Position numbers and translations under genes: made by a program | Source of the DNA: Syntrophobacter sp. SbD2 | GTDB lineage: Bacteria; Desulfobacterota; Binatia; UBA9968 | Direction of reading: 5' to 3' | Assembly: GCA_945889495.1 (NCBI GenBank) | Contig: CAMDBU010000009.1 | Coordinates: 1 to 63,676 of the forward strand | DNA: 63,676 nucleotides | Shown: positions 19,173-29,257 of the stretch, piece by piece | Numbering within the stretch: the stretch's first letter is position 1 | Layout: the number at the start of each line of letters is the position of its first letter | The notes under the pieces: generated by a model | Database searches by the model: none | What the model was told of the DNA's origin: nothing | Seen by the model: the letters and a program-made list of their open reading frames with translations, nothing else

Positions 19173-19454
19173 TTCGACATCGCGTCGGTTGCGACCAGAG
19201 ATCGGCGCCCGTTCGATTGCGAGCACCGGGCACTGATGATCGCAGCGTCCCGGCGGCGGAGAATTTTCTACCCAGCTAGCGATGCAGTTCTTAGCGCGTC
19301 CCGGTCGAGGCCGCGGTCCACCATCGATCTCTGACGGCAGTTTTCATGCCTGTGAAAACAACCGCCGAGACTATCCCATTGCCACATGCTAAACTCCCGA
19401 ACTACCGGCACTCCCGGTCCGAGGGACAACATAGATATCCGCTCGACAACCCCG

Positions 19455-20954
19455 ATGAGCAGCAACGTATTTCTCTCTTACGCTTCCGAGCAGAGCGACG
19501 CCGCCGGCGCCATCGCCCTGGCGCTTAAAGACCGCGGCCACAGCGTGTTTCACGACCGCTCGTCCTTGCCGGCGGGCGAGGGATTCGACGCGCGCATCCA
19601 AGAAGCCATTGACGAATGCGATCTCTTGGTATTTCTGATCAGCCATGGGTCGGTCCAGAGCGGCCGCTACACGCTCACCGAGTTAAAATTCACCGAGCAG
19701 AAATGGCCCCATCCAGCCGGCCATGTGCTGCCAGTTTTGGTCGAGGCGGTGCCAAAGAGCGAAATCCCAACCTATCTGCGTGCGGTCACGCTGTTTCAAG
19801 CGAGAGGCAATCTTACCGCCGAAGTCGCCGCCGAAGTCGACCGCATGACCGCAGCTTGGTGGCGCCGCATGCTCAAGCCGCGGCGGCTGGTGCCGGTCAT
19901 CGCGGCTGCGCTCATCCTCGCCTTGGCGACCTCTTGGCTGGCCCAACATTTCACGCGCCGCGAGTTGGAGAGAAAAACCGCCGAACTGGTCAAGCAAAGC
20001 CTGGTGTTGGCCGACTCTGGCAACGTGAAGGAAGCTTGGAAGCTTTTGGACCAGGCGAAAAGTATCGCGCCGCAATCGGCTAGCGTCGCAGAGACCGAGG
20101 AAAGGTTGGTCATGAAGCCGCTGCGCGGGATCGGGCTTAGCTACGCCAGCTTCGATCGGAGCTTCTTCGATGATCTGACTAATCGGGTCACCCCGGTGCT
20201 CACGCGCGGCGCCGCCTCGGCGCAGGGCGAGCGATTGGCCAACCTACTGGCCCATCTGGGCTGGGCCGATTACCTGCGCCAGTTGGGCGGTATCAGCACC
20301 GATAATCCAGCCACTCAATATCGCCGCGCCGTCGAAGCCGATCCAAACAATCTGTACGCCCACGCCATGTGGGGATTTGAGCTGTTGCGAACGCGCCGGT
20401 CACCAACCCAACTGGTCGAGGCCAAGCGCCACTTTACGGTCGCTCTCGGGTCCAGGCGCGAGCGCGACTACTTGCGCCGCGTGCAGATCGCCGGCTTCAT
20501 GCAAAGCTACAGCAACGTCTGGATCGACGACCCGGAACGGCAAGTCGAGACCCTCAAGGTCGTCAATGAAATGCGCCTCAACGGCGAGAATTTTCCGAAA
20601 GGATGGGGACCGGGCACACTGGGCGGAAAGCTTTGGAGCATTTACGATTACACCGTTATCGGCGACAACAACTTGGCTGCGCTGCTGACCGGCCTACCCG
20701 CCAAAGAACAGCTCGCGTTGTTCCACTGGCTGTTCCCGGAAAACGAACCTTCTCCTGCCGGCGGCGGTGCTCCGCCACTATTCAACTACCTCTACGTCCG
20801 CGCCCAACTTCAGGAACACAGCGGCGCCGGCACCGAAGCACTCGACTCCTACCGGCGGCTGCTGCGCGAGTTCAGCGCGAAAGGTTACGACGGCTCTCAA
20901 GCATCCCAAACCGCCAACCGCGCCAAGGCGGCGATCAAGCGGTTGTCTAATTGA
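19455..20954 (+). CDS. TIR-domain protein with membrane anchor and TPR-like C-terminus
   Basis: From the ATG at 19455 the product has 499 residues. Residues 1-135 form a TIR domain, starting NVFLSYAS with the strand HSVFHDR. The putative catalytic glutamate of NAD-cleaving TIRs is E76 in TLTELKF. A hydrophobic helix at about 146-166 (VIAAALILALATSWLA) anchors it. The rest is helical with TPR-like repeats such as YRRAVEADPNNLYAHAMWG. This layout fits a membrane-bound receptor-type TIR protein whose C-terminal part senses or scaffolds. The frame extends upstream to 19386, but the TIR consensus begins at the chosen start. It lies next to a restriction-like cassette, so a role in defence is possible but not shown. 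Confidence 0.8.
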   Translation: MSSNVFLSYASEQSDAAGAIALALKDRGHSVFHDRSSLPAGEGFDARIQEAIDECDLLVFLISHGSVQSGRYTLTELKFTEQKWPHPAGHVLPVLVEAVPKSEIPTYLRAVTLFQARGNLTAEVAAEVDRMTAAWWRRMLKPRRLVPVIAAALILALATSWLAQHFTRRELERKTAELVKQSLVLADSGNVKEAWKLLDQAKSIAPQSASVAETEERLVMKPLRGIGLSYASFDRSFFDDLTNRVTPVLTRGAASAQGERLANLLAHLGWADYLRQLGGISTDNPATQYRRAVEADPNNLYAHAMWGFELLRTRRSPTQLVEAKRHFTVALGSRRERDYLRRVQIAGFMQSYSNVWIDDPERQVETLKVVNEMRLNGENFPKGWGPGTLGGKLWSIYDYTVIGDNNLAALLTGLPAKEQLALFHWLFPENEPSPAGGGAPPLFNYLYVRAQLQEHSGAGTEALDSYRRLLREFSAKGYDGSQASQTANRAKAAIKRLSN

Positions 20955-21245: not shown

Positions 21246-24200
21246 TCATCCGGTGGCCTCCTCGATGATCTTGATCTCGGCGGGGGTCAGGCCGTAAAGC
21301 GCATACACCAACTCGTCTATCTCCCGCTCCAACGCACTTGTGTCCGTCTCGGCATCGCGCTGTTTCGCCGCGAGGATGCGAGTGGACAACTTGGCAAGGC
21401 GCTCTTGGTCTTTCTCGCCAGCCATTGCTACGGGCAAATTGTCAACTTCGTATCCGTTTACGTTGCTGTTGGTGCTTGTCTTCGAGAAAACAAAGTTGAG
21501 CAATGTGCTTTTCAATAATGCGAGCAGGTATTCGGGCTGAATCGTTGAATTTCGTAGGACAAGATAGTTTACTGAATTGGCGCAGAATGTTCCTTCATTC
21601 GCCAAGGTCATTTTGAGCCTGATCCTCTCGTTAACTCCAGTAATTCCCTGCATGACGATCCGGCGGAGCTTGTGGTGCTGCGATCTTTTGCCGTAGTTCT
21701 CTGCCAAGTATTCCCTTGAATTCAAAAAAAGTATCTCGCCTTGGCTCATGGAATGCCTGATCCGATATTTGTCGATTATCGCCCCCTTTATCAGCACCTC
21801 TTTGTTCTTGTCTTTGGAGAGATACCGTTTGTCCTGGGTGAGATCGATTTCTCCCGTATAACAGTGACCTATCGAAGAGAGCGAAGACGCTTTCTTGTAA
21901 ATGGACTCAACCACGGCAAGCTCGCTCGGCTTGAGAAGAGGAATTGTATAATTAACATTGTCCAGTGCCTGAATGGTTTTCAGATTAAGAAATGTCTTTT
22001 CATTGCTAACGTCCACGTACTTGTCGCTGTGAATTCGCAGCGAAAATGGAGAGTTTGAGTTGTCGTGCCCGAGCAGGGTGGTCACGCAAACGGACATTTT
22101 GACCGCTTCAAACACCCGCTTCATCTCGTTGTCTCGTTCCGGGAATGCTTCGATACCGAGCAATCCATGATGCTTTAGCAGGTGTTCACGCAGTGCGGCA
22201 GCGCTTGAATCACACGCGAAGGCAAGAGGAAATATCTCTGAGAAGCAACCTCGTTTCCGCAGAATATTGACGCTCCTGACAATGAAAAGTCTGAAAACGT
22301 TAATCATACCGCCGCGCGCAGGCGAAAACTCAGGTGCAGACTTGAAATTCTGTAGCTCTTGATCGGAAACAATAATCGACTCGTGTTTGTTCTGGCGTTT
22401 GTTGATAAGCCCGTATGGTGGATTTGCTACCACCACGTCGAATCCATTTCGTTTGTGAAAGACCTCAGAGAAGTAAATCTTGAAATCGAAGGTCTCCTTA
22501 CCGTTTGTAAGTTGGTAAATTAAATCGTCGATCTCGCGCTTCAGCGCCACCTTCTTGTCCGTGTCTGACGCATCAAAATAGAGAGGTTTTAGTGTTTCAA
22601 GCTGCTGGTATAGTTTTTCATTGAAGAGCGTCTTCTCTACACCAAGCAGCGAATTGCCAGTCACAATCTTGTAAGAAAGATTTGGCAGCGGCTTAATTTG
22701 CTTCACGTCCTCTTCATCCACTACGAGCGATAGCCAGAGCCGTAGTTTGGCGATTTCCACCGCGCCGGGGTCAATATCCACACCATACAGGCAGCTCTGA
22801 ATGGCGTGGCGTTTGAAGTGGTAAGGCGTCCGGTCATAAACGTCGTTGAAATAGGGGGTTAGCGCGGAGCGTGCGCGAACAATTTCAGTCATCATGCCCA
22901 CCGGAAAAGCTCCTGAACCGACGGCGGGGTCACAGATGGTGATGTCGGCGAGCGTCTCGTCGATCAACCTGGCGTGTTTTTCGATGGTCGACGGCATCTT
23001 AATGGAATACTTCGCATCCACGGCCTCGTAGTGGGAGATTTGCTCGCCGAGGTGGATGAAGGTTTCGATTTCCTTGCGAGGAACGGCTTCCTTGTCCCCA
23101 TTAAGTGTGGTGTCAAGGTAATTGATAAGGCTTTCCTGACACATGTAGTGGACGATTTCGCGCGGCGTGTAGAACGAGCCGAGACCTTTGCGGCGGTTTT
23201 CCTCAATCAGGTTTTCAAAGACTTTGCCGAGCATCTCCGGGTCAATGGCCACTTCCTTCTCCAGCGGCTCGGCTTCGTTGATGGTGAAGTTGTAGCGGTC
23301 GAACACGTCGAGGATGCCCGTGCCGATGTCGCCCGCGTCGGTGCGCTCGGTGTTGGTAAACAATTTGTTAGACAGGATGATGTCGGCCCTGCGCCAGTCG
23401 TAATTGGCAAGCGGCTCGAACAGACCGCCGTTGAGGAACGGGATACGGCATTTGAAACGGTTGCACCACGCCTCATGGCCGCGATCGGTTGCCAACGTGT
23501 CGTAGAAGAGCGGTTCGAGAACGTCGTTGAAAAAATTGTCGTAAGTGCCGTAGTCGCCTTTCGCCAGCCGTCGAAGGAAATCGTGCGGGCCCGTTCCCCA
23601 GTCCTGGCCCTTGGCCACGCCGAGCCAACCCTTTTTTTGGAGGAAATAGAGAAACACACTCTTACCCATGAGCTTCTTGGCGAAGTCCACGGTGCCGACT
23701 TTCTTTTTCTTGAACTCGTTGGCGACGGTTTTGTCTTTGGCCAAGAGTTTCTGGAGCGCCGCGTCAATTTGGCCAAATAGCGCTGCATATTGATTAAAGA
23801 ACTCCTTGGTGACGGCTTCGACACTGAAGGCGTCTTCGAGTTGTGCCAGAGTCGGGTAATTCTCGGTGTCCTGAAGCAATGCGAGAAAACGGGCTTGCGC
23901 GGTGTGGCAACTCTCGCCTTCACCGACGATGTAGGATAAACGGCGGGCGGGTGTTAGGCGCGTCTCGACGCCGACGCGACCGGCCTCGGTTTTGACGGCG
24001 GCATACTCCATCTTGACGTACGAGAACCGCCATTGTCTTTCGGTGGGCGAGACGAACGCGACAATTGCGGCGTCTTTTTCGTCGCGGGTTTTGAGATGGT
24101 CGGCGACGAAATTGCGGATGGCAGTCCGGGCGCGCTCCAGTTTGGATTCGTTGGTCAGGTGAACGATGAGCACGTCGAGCTTCTCGTCATCCGGCGACGT

Positions 24201-24392
24201 GTATGTGCCAAGGCGTTCAAACCGTGAGACATGCTTCTTAAAAGCGTCTTTGACGTAAGTGGTGTTCCACGCCTGCGCCTTGGACTCGTCAATGCGGTTG
24301 AGCAGGTTGATGGCGAAGTTGCGGAAGCGTGCCTTGTCGAAGGTCTGCGGAAAAGTTTCGGTGACGAGCGCGCGGGCTTGCTGGGAATTCAT
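21246..24392 (-). CDS. Eco57I-type N6-adenine DNA methyltransferase of a restriction-like system
   Basis: The 1048-residue protein has a roughly 380-residue helical N-terminal part and the lead-in GSFYTPREIVHYM at about 406-418. AdoMet motif I is DPAVGSGAFPVG (488-499), and catalytic motif IV, NPPYG, is at 657-661, typical of gamma-class N6-adenine methylases. The C-terminal 300 residues look like a target-recognition domain, ending in segments such as SKTSTNSNVNGYEV and VDNLPVAMA. I see no PD-(D/E)XK nuclease motif in its N-terminus, unlike classical type IIG enzymes. Its ATG overlaps the stop of the PLD-helicase gene in an ATGA, so the two are translationally coupled. It probably marks host DNA while the partner attacks unmarked DNA. 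The 3' part is AT-richer than the rest. Confidence 0.9.
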   Translation of the reverse strand: MNSQQARALVTETFPQTFDKARFRNFAINLLNRIDESKAQAWNTTYVKDAFKKHVSRFERLGTYTSPDDEKLDVLIVHLTNESKLERARTAIRNFVADHLKTRDEKDAAIVAFVSPTERQWRFSYVKMEYAAVKTEAGRVGVETRLTPARRLSYIVGEGESCHTAQARFLALLQDTENYPTLAQLEDAFSVEAVTKEFFNQYAALFGQIDAALQKLLAKDKTVANEFKKKKVGTVDFAKKLMGKSVFLYFLQKKGWLGVAKGQDWGTGPHDFLRRLAKGDYGTYDNFFNDVLEPLFYDTLATDRGHEAWCNRFKCRIPFLNGGLFEPLANYDWRRADIILSNKLFTNTERTDAGDIGTGILDVFDRYNFTINEAEPLEKEVAIDPEMLGKVFENLIEENRRKGLGSFYTPREIVHYMCQESLINYLDTTLNGDKEAVPRKEIETFIHLGEQISHYEAVDAKYSIKMPSTIEKHARLIDETLADITICDPAVGSGAFPVGMMTEIVRARSALTPYFNDVYDRTPYHFKRHAIQSCLYGVDIDPGAVEIAKLRLWLSLVVDEEDVKQIKPLPNLSYKIVTGNSLLGVEKTLFNEKLYQQLETLKPLYFDASDTDKKVALKREIDDLIYQLTNGKETFDFKIYFSEVFHKRNGFDVVVANPPYGLINKRQNKHESIIVSDQELQNFKSAPEFSPARGGMINVFRLFIVRSVNILRKRGCFSEIFPLAFACDSSAAALREHLLKHHGLLGIEAFPERDNEMKRVFEAVKMSVCVTTLLGHDNSNSPFSLRIHSDKYVDVSNEKTFLNLKTIQALDNVNYTIPLLKPSELAVVESIYKKASSLSSIGHCYTGEIDLTQDKRYLSKDKNKEVLIKGAIIDKYRIRHSMSQGEILFLNSREYLAENYGKRSQHHKLRRIVMQGITGVNERIRLKMTLANEGTFCANSVNYLVLRNSTIQPEYLLALLKSTLLNFVFSKTSTNSNVNGYEVDNLPVAMAGEKDQERLAKLSTRILAAKQRDAETDTSALEREIDELVYALYGLTPAEIKIIEEATG

Positions 24393-27300
24393 GGCTGTTG
24401 AACCAAGTATGATGAAAGGATGACTTCACGCGGGGCGAGCGATTGGCCGATATGCGCGGCGGCGCTGGTCTGGAAAAATTCCCGCGCAATGCCGCGTCGC
24501 AAGATGGCCAGAACTTTGAGCGGCTGGATTTCCTTCTTGAGCGCGGCGGCAATTTTTTTGGTCGTGGGTTTCGGCAATGCACCATCCTCCAAGAGCCGGA
24601 TGACTTTGCCGACGAAGTCTTCATCATCTTCGGTGAACTGCTGACAGCGGCGAATTTCCTTGGCCTTAAGCCGTTTCAACATGTAGGCATCGTTGGGACT
24701 GCCGCGATGTGAGGCTTCGGCTTGTTCAGCGTCCGCAGTGGTGGCATTCATGAATGCGGCCTTGTTCCGGTCGAGCAGGTCGTAAAACTCACGCGGAATG
24801 GACTGGCGCGGTTCTTTGGGGTCGACGGGCTGCAAGATTTTCGCGGCGGACATGAAATCCAGTTCGGCAGTCGGCGGTTTGCCGGATGTACAAAGGAAAA
24901 ACTTATCGAGCTTGCCTTGCCGGAAGTAGGAGAGCAGCGCGGGATAGTTTTGGACTGCGGGATCGGAAGACAAGACGCGGGTGGAACGCGCCTTTTTCGG
25001 TAGGCGTTTAATGCGCTCAAAGATGTCGGGCTGTTTGTCGCGGACAGTGCGGATTTCGGTGAGGAACTTGAGTTCGGTTTCCTCGTTCTCATCTTCGCCG
25101 GTGATGGTCTTCTTGGAATTCCACCTGGCGAAAAGGTCATGCGAGACAATTTCCTCGCCCTCGGTCAACAGGCGTGCGTCCGCGCCGAGCATTTGGATGA
25201 AGGCGTGGATTTTCGCCTCGGCGGCTTCCTTGAGCTTGATGAGGTCGTTGCCTTCGTCGGTCGGAAAAAAGTTGTAGGTGTAAATCTTGTCGAACTTGGT
25301 GTCCACGCGGTTGACGCGCCCTACGCGCTGGATGAGGCGCGTGGGATTCCACGGGATGTCGTAATTGATGACGACGTTAGAGCGGTGCAGGTTCACGCCT
25401 TCGGAAAGGACTTCGGTGCAGACGAGGATGCGGTAATCGTCCTTGGGACGAAATGCCTTGGCGTCAAAGTTGGTGATGACTTCTTCGCGGACGGTTTTAA
25501 GTGATCCGCCCGTGAAGAGCAGAACTTTGGGTTCGACTTCGTCACGGATTTTTCCTGCGAGATAATCAGCGGTTTCCTTCGACTCGGTGAAGATAATGAG
25601 TTTGCTGGCTTTGAGCAGTGGAGTTTTCTTCAGGATGTCTCGGAAAGATTCCCACTTGGGGTCGCGGGTAATTTTCTTCCAGTCGTTGAGTATGGCTTTC
25701 AGCGCCTCCAAATCCTTTGCGAGGTCAGTGATGAACTCCGACTTGAAATCCTTGGCGGACAGCTTCTCGGCCTTCTCCTCTTCCAACAACCGGTCGATAC
25801 CATCCTGATTGTCGGATTCGAGGAGTTCAAAAACCTTCCCGATGTGTTCCTTGCTGATGAAGAAGTGGCCCTTGTGGAACTCCGCAATGACACGCTCATA
25901 AGTGTGGATGAAGCGTCCGAGCGTGGATAGAAACGCTGTGAAACTGCTTTCGAGGCGCTTCACCGCGAGGATTTTCATAAACTTAGCGAGATTGAAGTGG
26001 CTCTGGATTTCCTGCTCGTCGCGCTCGCCAGTGTAGTAGTTCAGCGGCTGGTAGCGGGCGTACTTGAGGTCGAGCGTCAGCGCACGGATCGTCTTGTCGA
26101 ACACTTCGGCCTCGATCTTATTGAATTTGTAGAAGAGCGGTTCGGGGTCGACGACTTCGGGAAACTTCAAGCCCTGCTGCTTCAAATCTTCGCCATAGTA
26201 TTTGTCAATCTCGGTGCGTGTGCGTCGGATCATCAGGAACTTGAGGATTTTCTCGCGGGTTTGCCTGGCGTTTTCCTGCACCGTGCGGAAATAGACCTCG
26301 CGGTCGCGCTGGCGGTCGAGACCCTTGAGCTTGCGTTGAAGCGCGCCGAAGAACGCTTCGAGATTGCGGACGTTCGGGATGGTGCTGTTCTTGCCGGGTT
26401 GGAAAAGTTTGATCTGGCTCAAGATGTCCTGCGGCGTGTTGTTCAGCGGCGTGGCGGAAACGAGAACGACGCGCTTGCCGCGACAAATCTGCGCGAGCAT
26501 CTCATAGCTTTGTGTGTCCTCGGTGCGGAAGCGGTGCGACTCGTCAATGAAGACTGTGGTGAATTTCTGGAAGTCGCGATCCAGCAGCGAGTCGAGTTTG
26601 CCGAGGGACTCGCACAGGTAGCCGCGCACACCGAAGTCGCGGAACACATTCGGCCACGAGCCGGGGTTGTGTTCGTCGAGCAGGTGCGGCGGTGCGATGA
26701 CGAGGCAAGGCTCGTTGAGGTGTTGGGCGAGCAACGCGGACATGTAGGTTTTGCCCAAGCCGACCACGTCGGACAGGAATGCGCCGCCGTATTCGTCAAG
26801 CACTTTGCGGGCGTTCAGCACGGCCTCTTCCTGGTATTTTAGTTTCATGAAGCCCGTCGGCAGATACATGTCCTCGATTTCGTCGGGCAAGTTGAGTTCG
26901 CCACGGAAATACTCGTATAGGAATTTTAGATAGAGTTCGTAGGGCGTGAATTGCGCGAAAGGCGATTTAACTTCGATGGTCGTTACGTAATCCTTGGACA
27001 CGTCCACGGACTTGGCCCAAAGCTCGTTGAACTTCTCGATAGCGAAATCGTAGTCGGAGCGGTTCTTCAATTCGACGTTGAACTCCAGATTGTCCTGCAA
27101 GCCCGCCTCGGTGAAGTTGCTCGAACCCGTGATGACGCGGCCCTTGTCACGGTCGCCCTCGTGGAACGTCATGATGTAGAGTTTGGCGTGGAGCCGCTCA
27201 GACGGGTAGGCACGGACTTCTAGTTTGCCTGACTTGATCCATTCCACGAATTTGCGAACACCGTCTTCGATGTCCGAACTGTCGCCAGACTTTTGGAGTT

Positions 27301-27598
27301 CGCCCAAGATTTCGCCGGGAACTCGCTCCCTGACTTGGGCGTGGGATTCCAAAACAAACTCCTGCTGCTTTTTTGCGGTCTGGATTAATTCGTAAGTCGC
27401 GCCATCGGTCTTGATGCCGACGAGAATGCGAATCTTCTCCGTCTTTGTAAGCGCGGGATGAAGTTTGTGAAAACCGCTGATGAAAAAATAGCCGACGAGA
27501 CAATCGAAGAAGCGCGTGTCGTCACCGAGCAAGACACTGAAGCGGTCGCGCAGGCTCTTGCCGGCCTCGTTGGTGATGAATGTCAGGTCAGTGGACAT
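24389..27598 (-). CDS. PLD/HKD-nuclease domain fused to SNF2-type helicase
   Basis: The 1069-residue protein begins with a phospholipase-D-like nuclease domain (about residues 1-200). It carries H137 and K139 in RLHAKLYI and the partner motif GSSNFTE from 159; the canonical HKD aspartate four residues on is absent, as in several HKD nucleases. A superfamily 2 helicase follows with Walker A-type DVVGLGKT (277-284), DESH (352-355), motif III VSATPLNNTP, and motif VI IQRVGRVNRVD. The C-terminal 250 residues are unassigned. It likely translocates on DNA with ATP and cuts through the PLD domain. It is the first gene of a two-gene operon with the methylase. DISARM-type systems use similar parts, but no drmA- or drmB-like gene is present. 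Confidence 0.9.
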   Translation of the reverse strand: MSTDLTFITNEAGKSLRDRFSVLLGDDTRFFDCLVGYFFISGFHKLHPALTKTEKIRILVGIKTDGATYELIQTAKKQQEFVLESHAQVRERVPGEILGELQKSGDSSDIEDGVRKFVEWIKSGKLEVRAYPSERLHAKLYIMTFHEGDRDKGRVITGSSNFTEAGLQDNLEFNVELKNRSDYDFAIEKFNELWAKSVDVSKDYVTTIEVKSPFAQFTPYELYLKFLYEYFRGELNLPDEIEDMYLPTGFMKLKYQEEAVLNARKVLDEYGGAFLSDVVGLGKTYMSALLAQHLNEPCLVIAPPHLLDEHNPGSWPNVFRDFGVRGYLCESLGKLDSLLDRDFQKFTTVFIDESHRFRTEDTQSYEMLAQICRGKRVVLVSATPLNNTPQDILSQIKLFQPGKNSTIPNVRNLEAFFGALQRKLKGLDRQRDREVYFRTVQENARQTREKILKFLMIRRTRTEIDKYYGEDLKQQGLKFPEVVDPEPLFYKFNKIEAEVFDKTIRALTLDLKYARYQPLNYYTGERDEQEIQSHFNLAKFMKILAVKRLESSFTAFLSTLGRFIHTYERVIAEFHKGHFFISKEHIGKVFELLESDNQDGIDRLLEEEKAEKLSAKDFKSEFITDLAKDLEALKAILNDWKKITRDPKWESFRDILKKTPLLKASKLIIFTESKETADYLAGKIRDEVEPKVLLFTGGSLKTVREEVITNFDAKAFRPKDDYRILVCTEVLSEGVNLHRSNVVINYDIPWNPTRLIQRVGRVNRVDTKFDKIYTYNFFPTDEGNDLIKLKEAAEAKIHAFIQMLGADARLLTEGEEIVSHDLFARWNSKKTITGEDENEETELKFLTEIRTVRDKQPDIFERIKRLPKKARSTRVLSSDPAVQNYPALLSYFRQGKLDKFFLCTSGKPPTAELDFMSAAKILQPVDPKEPRQSIPREFYDLLDRNKAAFMNATTADAEQAEASHRGSPNDAYMLKRLKAKEIRRCQQFTEDDEDFVGKVIRLLEDGALPKPTTKKIAAALKKEIQPLKVLAILRRGIAREFFQTSAAAHIGQSLAPREVILSSYLVQQP

Positions 27599-28136: not shown

Positions 28137-28403
28137 CTATTTCTTCACGAGGTAGCCAATGATACCGCCAGCCGCCGCCGATAAAACTGACATAGCCCAC
28201 TTTTTTTCGTCAGCCGTCGCAGTTTTGGAAGCCAATGTATCGTAGCACAACCAGACGAGCAGCATTACGAAGCCGACCGCTACGATAAAAAGCACCACCT
28301 CTTTAAAGAGACGTACTTTGAGTTCACCTGATGTCTCTTCCCGTTCGATGGAAACCGACACCTGGTGATTCGGCGGTGGGTTGCCGAGGTCGAGTTGGCT
28401 CAC
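28137..28403 (-). CDS. Small membrane protein paired with an RHH regulator
   Basis: The 88-residue product has a polar N-terminal 30 residues, a transmembrane helix at about 35-55 (VVLFIVAVGFVMLLVWLCY), a short charged loop, and a second hydrophobic segment near the C-terminus (VLSAAAGGIIGYLV). The glycine-rich second helix resembles small pore-like or anchor segments. Its start overlaps the stop of the upstream RHH gene in an ATGA, so the two are translated together. I do not recognise the family. It could be a toxin-like membrane peptide controlled by the RHH protein, but nothing in the sequence proves that. Confidence 0.65.
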   Translation of the reverse strand: MSQLDLGNPPPNHQVSVSIEREETSGELKVRLFKEVVLFIVAVGFVMLLVWLCYDTLASKTATADEKKWAMSVLSAAAGGIIGYLVKK

Positions 28404-28606
28404 AGACCGACGATCTCTGTTTCAACCTTTTGAGTGCTTGGTTCAATCAGCCCCAATTTAAGCCCCTTCTTTTTACCTTCCCGGGCGGCCAGATAAAGCG
28501 TCAAAGCTTTTCGCAAAATCTCACTTTTGTTGGATTCCGTTTCCGCAGCAGCTTTATCGATTTCCTTGTTGAGATCGTCCGAGAGCGTTACGTTTAACCT
28601 GATCAC
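28400..28606 (-). CDS. Ribbon-helix-helix (CopG-type) DNA-binding protein
   Basis: The 68-residue product begins with the RHH strand MIRLNVTLSDDLNKEIDKAA and continues with the helix-turn-helix ESNKSEILRKALTLYLAAR, a standard MetJ/Arc/CopG dimer fold. The start is a GTG preceded by GAGGTG at good spacing. A copy of the repeat ttacacc overlaps this ribosome-binding region and a second overlaps the -10 box, which suggests autoregulation. It is probably the repressor or antitoxin-like partner of the small membrane protein whose gene it overlaps by four bases. Confidence 0.8.
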   Translation of the reverse strand: MIRLNVTLSDDLNKEIDKAAAETESNKSEILRKALTLYLAAREGKKKGLKLGLIEPSTQKVETEIVGL

Positions 28607-28858: not shown

Positions 28859-29257
28859 TTATACGGAGAAACCACCTTCAACTTCGGACAGGAGAGCGTC
28901 GACCGCGTTGAGATCGTGCAGCAAAATTTTTTCTTTCGGCGATTTTCCGTCGAGCACTTTAATCGGCGTGCGTAGCCAGGCTCTCGCGGTTTTGAGATCG
29001 TTATCCATCAGCCCAAGCAAGTGGGTGATGGTCGCCGCCAATTGGCTCAGGGGCTGCTGGTAGTTGAGCGATGCGCCGTTACGCGAAATCGCCGACGGAT
29101 CCTTGTCTAGGTAGCGCGCAATCTCCTGGCCGCTCCAATCTAGGAGTTTCGCCAATTTAACGGCATCATATCGGCCTTGATCGTCGATGCTCTCAGCCAA
29201 AATGTTGAGATGGCGAGGACGCGACGCCAGCGGTTGACGTTCTGCTTGGACAGGCAT
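28859..29257 (-). CDS. Xre/MbcA/ParS-type antitoxin, apparently without a toxin partner
   Basis: The 132-residue protein has an N-terminal helix-turn-helix region (LAKLLDWSGQEIARYL, then DKDPSAISR). Its C-terminal segment ARAWLRTPIKVLDGKSPKE matches the toxin-binding domain of antitoxins that partner RES-type NAD-consuming toxins. No RES gene lies upstream or downstream: cysNC is upstream, and only about 250 bases without a plausible toxin frame follow. A strong Shine-Dalgarno AAGGAG precedes the ATG, and the promoter is listed separately. It may be a solitary remnant or a regulator that acts on a distant partner. Confidence 0.7.
   Translation of the reverse strand: MPVQAERQPLASRPRHLNILAESIDDQGRYDAVKLAKLLDWSGQEIARYLDKDPSAISRNGASLNYQQPLSQLAATITHLLGLMDNDLKTARAWLRTPIKVLDGKSPKEKILLHDLNAVDALLSEVEGGFSV

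What the first reader, a model, noticed from the sequence alone, without database searches (positions are those of the whole stretch)
21246..27598. Two-gene PLD-helicase and Eco57I-type methylase cassette, a candidate defence system
A nuclease-like PLD domain sits on the helicase rather than on the methylase: H137 and K139, motif GSSNFTE, then SF2 motifs. The partner has AdoMet motifs DPAVGSG and NPPYG and a likely target-recognition end, but no visible PD-(D/E)XK nuclease. The genes overlap as ATGA. Classical type IIG enzymes combine all functions, and DISARM needs additional drmA/B genes that are absent here. A minimal restrict-or-mark system with an ATP-driven PLD nuclease is a reasonable reading; how well similar pairs are described I can only recall vaguely from defence-island surveys.
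Basis: partly seen in the sequence, partly recalled or inferred. Interest (0 to 1): 0.75.

Follow-up and report, generated by a model that had tools for sequence, protein, structure and literature searches.

The report
Two-gene helicase-nuclease and DNA-methylase pair
Two neighbouring bacterial genes, a DNA motor carrying a likely cutting domain and an enzyme that marks DNA with an exchangeable recognition part, travel together across many bacteria and at least one archaeon and most likely form a compact defence that tells own from foreign DNA.

Summary
H (24389-27598, minus strand) is a PLD nuclease fused to an Snf2-type motor. M (21246-24392) is an Eco57I-type N6-adenine methylase with a target-recognition domain (TRD). 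They overlap by 4 nt. DUF499 and MZB (DUF1998) partners are absent from the genome. In 62 close H loci M follows in 58; the other 4 lie at contig ends. PLD and ATPase residues are unchanged in 126 of 126 H proteins. M's TRD behaves as an exchangeable cassette: in 122 of 134 informative pairs (not independent) it is dissimilar while H and the methylase core stay similar. H shows no such cassette, so target choice for cutting probably comes from M. M residues 1-170 match no Pfam family, mostly lack an E-x-K, track H's divergence, and share a contig with H at 18 of 20 places (one of the other two is a possible exception). I propose they dock H. Best reading: a two-protein, ATP-dependent restriction-modification system, working like a split Type ISP enzyme with a PLD nuclease. 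PADLOC labels M 'Type IIG'; the evidence leans against that. Cleavage and phage resistance are inferred, not shown. New variant of a known kind.

The parts
24389..27598 (-). gene H: PLD nuclease - Snf2-type motor, 1069 aa
   Evidence: catalytic residues kept in 126 of 126 H proteins
26999..27598 (-). PLD domain of H (about residues 1-200); H137-x-K139 at 27182-27190, GSSN 158-161 at 27116-27127, E172 at 27083-27085
   Evidence: PF13091 at residues 49-194; invariant residues; domain edges approximate
25133..26890 (-). Snf2/SF2 motor core of H (about residues 237-822)
   Evidence: Pfam matches; VIA-align rows span 233-838
24392..25132 (-). C-terminal part of H (residues 823-1069), the most variable part of H but no swapped cassette
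21246..24392 (-). gene M: N6-adenine methylase with TRD, 1048 aa; overlaps H by 4 nt
23883..24392 (-). N-domain of M (residues 1-170), proposed dock for H
   Evidence: no Pfam or PDB profile match; tracks H divergence; 18 of 20 places share a contig with H
22398..23882 (-). methylase core of M (residues 171-665); DPAVGSG at 22911-22931, NPPY at 22413-22424
   Evidence: PF07669 at 534-750; NPP in 86 of 86 M
21393..22397 (-). exchangeable target-recognition cassette of M (residues 666-1000)
   Evidence: 0.18-0.19 identity to L036 against 0.75-0.80 upstream; 122 of 134 pairs
21249..21392 (-). conserved C-terminal end of M (residues 1001-1048), far edge of the cassette
   Evidence: 0.56 identity to L036, third-position GC 0.81

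Best explanation
H and M form a two-protein, ATP-dependent restriction-modification system. M recognises a short DNA site through its TRD and methylates an adenine (N6), marking host DNA. H binds M, probably through M's N-terminal domain, and has no target recognition of its own. When M meets an unmethylated site, H's Snf2 motor is activated, moves on the DNA, and its PLD domains (as a dimer, as in BfiI and SauUSI) break it. Replacing M's TRD changes the specificity of marking and cutting together. In design it is a split Type ISP enzyme whose Mrr nuclease is replaced by a PLD nuclease. Shown by sequence: the parts, the pairing, residue conservation, cassette exchange, and co-variation of the N-domain with H. 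Inferred: complex formation, methylation, translocation, cleavage, phage resistance.
For: Pairing: 58 of 62 close H loci have M downstream on the same strand, 46 of them within 200 nt (16 of these overlapping); the other 4 lie at contig ends, and in 2 of these M's start is visible. Catalytic residues: H137, K139, N161, E172, K283, D352 and E353 in 126 of 126 H; NPP of the methylase in 86 of 86 M. Cassette: window against L036, M identity 0.77/0.75/0.80, then 0.18/0.19 over 666-1000, then 0.56; of 134 locus pairs with H >=0.62 and core >=0.5, 122 have TRD under 0.35; L053/L061 (distant clade) have H 0.94 with no 90-residue window under 0.76 and TRD 0.18-0.19, and the close pair L038/L114 has H 0.82 (lowest window 0.69) and TRD 0.19-0.21. 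Docking: in the close clade N-domain identity follows H (r 0.77; partial r 0.72 given the core, 0 of 500 permutations; core given N-domain 0.14); 25 pairs keep the N-domain while the core is replaced, e.g. L045/L047 with H 0.90, N 0.91, core 0.35; 18 of 20 N-domain places in 395 genomes share a contig with H. Folds: M aligns to CamA (Z 31.3, rmsd 3.3 A, 494 residues) and Type ISP LlaGI (Z 25.8, 5.5 A, 591); H to RapA and, rank 19, SauUSI in Foldseek. Precedent: SauUSI and CglI/NgoAVII are biochemically characterised PLD plus SF2 restriction enzymes (passages read).
Against: No functional evidence of any kind. Snf2 proteins can remodel or block DNA without driving cleavage, and DISARM shows that a methylase plus helicase need not depend on its PLD nuclease (passage). 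N-domain/H co-variation could partly be physical linkage, since the N-domain lies next to H. One N-domain (G214) stands at a contig start with no H in the 673 nt before it and no H match in that genome: a possible exception. H residues 901-1069 are more variable than the rest (90-residue windows down to 0.36), so some target contact by H is not excluded. 12 of the 134 core-similar pairs did not show TRD exchange, the pairs share loci, and 24 of the 25 'core replaced' pairs rest on four loci. Low third-position GC begins near residue 500 of M, before the cassette edge. In the distant clade the N-domain's marker residues are not conserved and M was not seen in 18 of 73 loci. Many loci carry extra genes, so another factor could be needed. 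Defence-island enrichment was not quantified.
Confidence: 0.6

Rival explanations
1. A BREX- or DISARM-like exclusion system: M marks self DNA, and H, activated on unmarked DNA, stalls or remodels phage replication; the PLD domain is secondary.
For: M's fold is very close to BrxX/PglX (Foldseek rank 1; VIA-align Z 26.9, 3.7 A, 673 residues) and H's best Foldseek match is RapA, the architecture that PMC12839542 reports for the BrxHII helicase (passages). The DISARM PLD protein DrmC is dispensable (passage in PMC9142583).
Against: Here the PLD site is fused to the motor and unchanged in 126 of 126 proteins. DUF499 and MZB are absent from the genome and PglZ gives only a sub-threshold match on another contig.
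Confidence: 0.16
2. M is a self-sufficient Type IIG enzyme that cuts and marks by itself, and H is an accessory helicase-nuclease or a separate defence gene.
For: PADLOC's Type IIG model fits M (759 bits); MmeI, DrdV and BpuSI are among M's fold matches. By eye the N-domain's strand-strand-helix run resembles the MmeI-type nuclease, a lead from memory only.
Against: [D/E]-x-K at the expected place in only 4 of 32 N-domains; N-domain with no Pfam or PDB profile match; H present in the close clade wherever the sequence allows it to be seen next to M, G214 being unresolved.
Confidence: 0.09
3. A modification-dependent or suicidal system: H attacks modified phage DNA or own DNA after M's methylation is disturbed.
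For: SauUSI, a PLD plus SF2 enzyme, cuts methylated DNA (passages); suicide action was proposed for HKD-SF2 systems in PMC10853773 (passages).
Against: SauUSI carries its own TRD, while H shows no exchangeable recognition part, and a dedicated methylase travels with H.
Confidence: 0.07
4. Not defence: an epigenetic or DNA-repair module.
For: No anti-phage test exists; solitary adenine methylases such as CamA, the nearest fold by VIA-align, regulate genes (function recalled).
Against: Patchy spread over many phyla with unrelated flanks, an exchangeable TRD and a conserved nuclease site.
Confidence: 0.04

Closest known systems
Type ISP restriction-modification enzymes (LlaGI, LlaBIII)
   Same: SF2 motor, N6 methylase and TRD working as one unit; M residues 162-1034 align to LlaGI 699-1569.
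   Different: Type ISP is a single chain with an Mrr-family nuclease (abstract); here two chains, a PLD nuclease, an Snf2-type motor and an unassigned N-domain on M.
Type-2 BREX-related (DUF499-centred, partly 'Hma') systems
   Same: N-terminal HKD/PLD fused to a Swi2/Snf2 helicase, plus an N6 methylase, proposed to act like restriction-modification (sections 28 and 30 of PMC12839542).
   Different: They are built on a DUF499 ATPase and nearly always carry DUF3780 (1090 of 1120 taxa, 98% in that paper); DUF499 is absent from this genome.
SauUSI (Type IV)
   Same: PLD nuclease plus translocating SF2 motor in one chain (passages); Foldseek rank 19 for H.
   Different: Carries its own TRD, needs methylated targets and has no methylase partner.
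CglI / NgoAVII
   Same: PLD nuclease driven by an SF2 ATPase with a cognate methylase (passages).
   Different: PLD is joined to a B3 recognition domain and the ATPase is a separate chain; the methylase is a C5 enzyme.
DISARM class 1 (DrmD + DrmMI)
   Same: H and M match DrmD and DrmMI models distantly.
   Different: No MZB/DUF1998 protein in the genome; PLD is fused to the helicase.
PADLOC 'REase_MTase_IIG' model PDLC03596 and 'HKD+Snf2' model C3a139
   Same: The first fits M (759 bits) and the second matches H over residues 35-799 (158 bits).
   Different: They are catalogue entries for single proteins; the first label implies a nuclease in M for which I found no signature.

Membership tests
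DISARM | drmB-type DUF1998/MZB protein in the system | tested here: not met
   PF09369 (MZB) 0 matches in the 95.6% complete genome; the same search rings in 8 of 14 control genomes. drmA itself was not searched by profile.
DISARM | helicase over the DrmD cut-off | tested here: not met
   NCBIfam DISARM_DrmD 138.2 bits, cut-off 610.
DUF499-centred BREX-related / Hma | DUF499 ATPase | tested here: not met
   PF04465 0 matches in the genome; control rings in 1 of 14.
DUF499-centred BREX-related, Type 2 | HKD fused N-terminally to a Swi2/Snf2 helicase, with an N6 methylase | tested here: met
   Pfam matches in H and M.
DUF499-centred BREX-related, Type 2 | stand-alone DUF3780 gene | not tested
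   No profile search was run; no neighbour family recurs in more than 7 of 62 close loci.
BREX | PglZ and a PglX over the cut-off | tested here: not met
   PglZ (PF08665) only 21.7 bits (cut-off 25) on contig C1, not C9; BREX-1 PglX model 56.4 bits, cut-off 500.
Type ISP | single polypeptide | tested here: not met
   Two ORFs in the window; no ORF matching both H and M among the loci read.
Type ISP | Mrr-family nuclease | tested here: not met
   H carries PLDc_2; no Mrr-type match among the Pfam matches of H or M.
Type ISP | SF2 motor plus coupler, N6 methylase and TRD | tested here: met
   M to LlaGI Z 25.8, rmsd 5.5 A, 591 residues; SF2 core in H. The coupler is judged from the aligned range only.
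Type IIG | nuclease and methylase in one chain with a PD-(D/E)XK signature | tested here: inconclusive
   [D/E]-x-K in 4 of 32 N-domains, no profile match; the N-domain's fold was not searched alone, so a degenerate nuclease fold is not excluded.
CglI/NgoAVII | PLD plus B3 protein with a separate DEAD/Z1 ATPase and a C5 methylase | tested here: not met
   PLD and motor are on one chain and the methylase is Eco57I-type; no B3 or Z1 among Pfam matches.
SauUSI-like Type IV | motor-nuclease chain with its own TRD and no methylase | tested here: not met
   M follows H in 58 of 62 close loci; no TRD-like swapped part seen in H.
Restriction-modification in general | sequence-specific methylation that protects from cleavage | not testable with these tools
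   Needs methylome and cleavage or plaque assays; the exchangeable TRD is indirect support.

The most novel reading that the evidence does not exclude
A widespread two-component class of ATP-dependent restriction-modification in which a near-constant PLD-Snf2 motor-nuclease is docked, through a previously undescribed N-terminal domain, onto interchangeable N6-methylases, so that specificity changes by swapping the TRD, or even the whole methylase body, without touching the nuclease. Proteins of this family now filed as single-chain Type IIG enzymes would then be the recognition subunits of this class.
Probability: 0.5. Interest if true: 0.72.

Novelty: new variant of a known kind. Interest (0 to 1): 0.55.

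Why it matters
If right, a protein family that an annotation library labels as self-sufficient Type IIG enzymes is really half of a two-part, motor-driven system. That changes how defence repertoires are counted and predicts that these M proteins will not cut on their own. It also offers a natural plug-in design, a near-constant nuclease-motor with exchangeable recognition subunits, for testing how an Snf2-type motor is gated by methylation, and the co-varying N-domain gives a concrete interface to test.

Tried and rejected
DISARM, BREX and DUF499/Hma membership were tested and rejected for lack of core partners. A nuclease in M's N-domain was looked for by motif, Pfam and PDB sequence profiles and not found. 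RapA, first in Foldseek for H, is not among the 50 VIA-align rows, which other Snf2 ATPases fill.

A conserved third gene was sought among 601 neighbouring ORFs of the 62 close loci: no family recurs in more than 7 loci. Two clusters reach 7. One is a Schlafen AlbA_2/HATPase protein, lying between H and M in five loci and as a fragment in a sixth; the other was not identified and its members lie at differing places. A fused H-M chain was sought among the loci read and not found.

My first motif count used fixed-window regular expressions and missed the full H-K-N-E pattern in 21 of 61 distant and 1 of 59 close H proteins; alignment showed the residues to be present. A case-control measure of defence-island enrichment was prepared but not run, because the tool's alignment-wide scan does not tell how many proteins have any match. 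Taking a recognition sequence from the nearest plasmid TRDs (including Alw26I/Eco31I/Esp3I-family methylases, about 24% identity) was rejected as too distant. A viral-contig scan with H alone gave no relative; with the alignment it did.

Ten paper searches listed no paper that I could see naming a stand-alone PLD-Snf2 plus N6-methylase pair; I opened eight papers and read passages, sections or an abstract, none whole. The library lacks most subscription papers, so this does not show absence from print.


Full report
What is there. On the minus strand, H (24389-27598, 1069 aa) is followed by M (21246-24392, 1048 aa) with a 4-nt overlap. H carries a PLD-like domain, an Snf2-related ATPase and Helicase_C; M carries Eco57I and TaqI_C, each over its Pfam cut-off. 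AlphaFold models are of fair quality (H mean pLDDT 83.2, pTM 0.74; M 81.8, 0.82). In Foldseek H is best matched by RapA (E 8.5e-19, TM-score 0.26 by query length), with SauUSI at rank 19. In VIA-align 2 the rows for H are other Snf2 ATPases, e.g. SMARCAD1 (Z 18.7, rmsd 4.2 A, 424 aligned), and RapA is not among the 50 shown. M is best matched by BrxX and CamA in Foldseek. In VIA-align 2 it aligns to CamA (Z 31.3, 3.3 A, 494), BrxX (Z 26.9, 3.7 A, 673), MmeI (Z 26.0, 4.0 A, 609) and Type ISP LlaGI (Z 25.8, 5.5 A, 591). On one side of the pair are an RHH gene, an Xre/ParS antitoxin-like gene, genes that I read by eye as cysN/C and cysD, and the ribosomal-protein region (rpoA, L17, adk, secY by Pfam). 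On the other side is a TIR gene. I saw no prophage genes among the neighbours that I scanned.

How widespread and how tightly paired. Relatives of H occur in 42 of 395 genomes of the same phylum at E <= 1e-40, close and distant ones together. M was matched at E <= 1e-30 in 2 of 145 near relatives, the window's own genome being one and the other only 37% identical, so the pair is patchy. Of these 136 loci, 62 have an H ORF at >=37.5% identity over >=850 residues (the 'close clade'). By record title they come from Verrucomicrobia, Dehalococcoidia, Omnitrophota, Parcubacteria, Peregrinibacteria, Brocadia, Deltaproteobacteria, Flavobacteriales, Clostridia, a Pelagibacteraceae genome, Athalassotoga, the archaeon Methanoculleus and others; many are metagenome bins. 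M lies downstream on the same strand in 58 of 62, within 200 nt in 46, of which 16 overlap; larger gaps reach 2132 nt. The other four (L044, L081, L104, L108) lie at contig ends. In L081 M's first part runs to the contig end and in L044 M's start is at the contig end. The remaining 73 loci with H, which are more distant or have H truncated or split, show M in 55 (46 downstream, 9 upstream); the 18 without M were not examined one by one. One locus (L075) was fetched for M and shows no H.

Catalytic residues. H137, K139, N161 and E172 of the PLD site and K283, D352 and E353 of the ATPase are unchanged in 86 of 86 aligned H proteins (47 close, 39 distant, window included, one exact duplicate) and in 40 of 40 further ones. 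Because the genome scan used patterns inside ATPase motifs, the ATPase count is partly circular for those loci; the PLD count is not. In M, N657-P658-P659 are kept in 86 of 86, D488, G492 and S493 in 86 of 86 and G494 in 81 of 86. The 11-residue spacing from N161 to E172 recalls the H-K-N-E site of BfiI, which I cite from memory; the SauUSI site is H(X)K(X)4E (passage in PMC7913695).

The target-recognition cassette. L036 (H 70% identical) has the M most similar to the window's among the complete ones: identity 0.77, 0.75 and 0.80 over residues 1-170, 171-480 and 481-665, then 0.18 and 0.19 over 666-860 and 861-1000, and 0.56 over 1001-1048. L082, with H slightly closer (0.72), gives 0.52, 0.51 and 0.56, then 0.19 and 0.19, then 0.65. 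At the DNA level similarity to L036 stops at window 22454; to L082 it is absent between 22645 and 21338 and resumes at 21338-21267. Third-position GC is 0.69 over residues 1-665, 0.57 over 666-1000 and 0.81 over 1001-1048, but the low values begin near residue 500, before the cassette edge. Among 161 pairs of 85 loci with H identity >=0.62, 134 have a methylase core >=0.50 identical; in 122 of these the TRD is below 0.35 and in 12 it is not. The pairs share loci and are not independent. The clearest case, L053/L061 in the distant clade, has H 0.94 with no 90-residue window below 0.76 and TRD 0.18-0.19; in the close clade L038/L114 has H 0.82, lowest window 0.69, and TRD 0.19-0.21. H therefore stays put while M's recognition part changes. 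Its most variable stretch (901-1069) drops to 0.36 in some pairs, so a minor contribution of H to recognition remains possible. In three of four loci compared (L081, L082, L036) DNA similarity to the window begins at H's start codon (27598) with no similarity in the flanks; in L166 the DNA match is only partial. This fits horizontal spread of the pair as a unit.

The N-domain of M. Residues 1-170 have no convincing Pfam match in 32 rows (best E 0.0083, each family in at most 2 rows) and no solved structure by profile (best E 0.22). R89, R93, N94, W121, R122 and S124 are identical in 32 of 32 close-clade rows, while a [D/E]-x-K at 78-80 is present in only 4 of 32; R89, R93, W121 and R122 hold in 47 of 47 close rows but not in the distant clade. 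The N-domain follows H: over 46 close-clade loci (946 pairs) its identity correlates 0.77 with that of H, and 0.72 after allowing for the methylase core, against 0.14 for the core after allowing for the N-domain; 0 of 500 taxon permutations reach the observed partial value. In 25 pairs the N-domain is kept (>=0.5) while the core is replaced (<0.5), for example L045/L047 with H 0.90, N-domain 0.91 and core 0.35; 24 of these pairs involve one of four loci (L047, L062, L089, L095). In 395 genomes the N-domain was found at 20 places in 19 genomes. At 16 the end of H lies in the fetched DNA, and two more (G182, G309) have H on the same contig. G265 has its N-domain 505 nt from a contig end and H on another contig. 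G214 has its N-domain 673 nt from a contig start with no H there or elsewhere in that genome, and stays unresolved. The simplest reading is a docking domain for H. Physical linkage next to H is an alternative; it is weakened, not excluded, by the far end of M (1001-1048) also following H better (0.55) than the core does (0.44) in the close clade.

How it probably works. M supplies recognition and marking; H supplies motor and nuclease. Since H has no cassette that changes with the TRD, cutting specificity should be taken from M, as in Type I, III and ISP systems. The PLD site probably needs two H subunits, as in BfiI and SauUSI (passages). SauUSI and CglI/NgoAVII show that a PLD nuclease can be coupled to an SF2 ATPase, and Type ISP shows a motor acting with a methylase and a recognition domain (abstract). 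None of these steps has been shown for this pair.

Comparison with what is known. The parts are catalogued: PADLOC has an 'HKD+Snf2' model (158 bits for H) and a 'Type IIG' model that by its scores fits this M family (759 bits for the window; 1257 for L045). The DrmD, DpdE and 'phospholipase D-like anti-phage protein' equivalogs of NCBIfam match H far below their cut-offs. DUF499 and MZB have no match in the genome, and PglZ gives only a sub-threshold match on another contig. The nearest printed description I found is the Type-2 BREX-related system, with the same kind of H fusion and an N6 methylase but a DUF499 core (sections 28 and 30 of PMC12839542). ARMADA (PMC12458937, passages) and the CxC-ABC/Pbe systems (PMC10853773, passages) share single parts. 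Ten searches of the library (listed under Tried and rejected) showed me no description of the stand-alone pair; most subscription papers are not held. I therefore call it a new variant of a known kind, not a new category.

Surroundings. Genes next to the pair in relatives differ from locus to locus. Of 10 accessory genes that I chose, Pfam matches over the cut-off include AbiJ_NTD4, Schlafen AlbA_2, HepT and nucleotidyltransferase, AAA_13, KAP NTPase, an NgoFVII-type PLD (24.1 bits, cut-off 23.8) and ORF6N; one had no match and one only a sub-threshold match. This suggests defence islands but was chosen by hand and not measured against a control.

Noticed in passing
L043:4819-8760 (-) and L091:13020-17099 (+): Two M genes carry an in-frame IS200-like (Y1_Tnp) transposase domain inside an otherwise open methylase frame, at different places (after the AdoMet motif in L043, before it in L091); the inserts are about 40% identical over 185 aligned residues. 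Whether a working protein results is unclear.
   Followed up: partly
window 19386-20954 (+): A TIR-domain protein (522 aa) stands convergent to the pair; its TIR part matches a PADLOC SAVED-TIR model (47 bits).
   Followed up: partly
window 28859-29257 (-): An Xre/MbcA/ParS-type antitoxin-like gene (PF09722, 27.9 bits, cut-off 24.5); no partner toxin among the neighbouring genes that I scanned.
   Followed up: no
window 28137-28606 (-): A ribbon-helix-helix (CopG-type) gene overlapping an 88-aa ORF without any Pfam match, upstream of the pair.
   Followed up: no
L041, L087, L092, L096, L122 (between H and M); L044: A Schlafen AlbA_2/HATPase-type protein of about 440-480 aa sits between H and M in five close loci (Pfam run on the L041 copy only); in L044 an MNT-HepT-like pair lies there.
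   Followed up: partly
L084:6802-7899 (+) and L049:3735-4859 (-): Downstream of M, L084 encodes a second, stand-alone PLD-like protein (RE_NgoFVII 24.1 bits, cut-off 23.8); the L049 gene looks H-x-K ... G-S-x-N by eye but has no Pfam match.
   Followed up: no
G285:C3:433272-434306 (L030): A likely degraded H remnant in one genome of the phylum: only residues 2-337 match, with one internal TGA.
   Followed up: no
L161-L167: Seven close-clade loci come from viral contigs, but L167 has H and M identical to those of L114, a Desulfarculales genome bin, so some of these 'viral' contigs may be host DNA or integrated elements.
   Followed up: no
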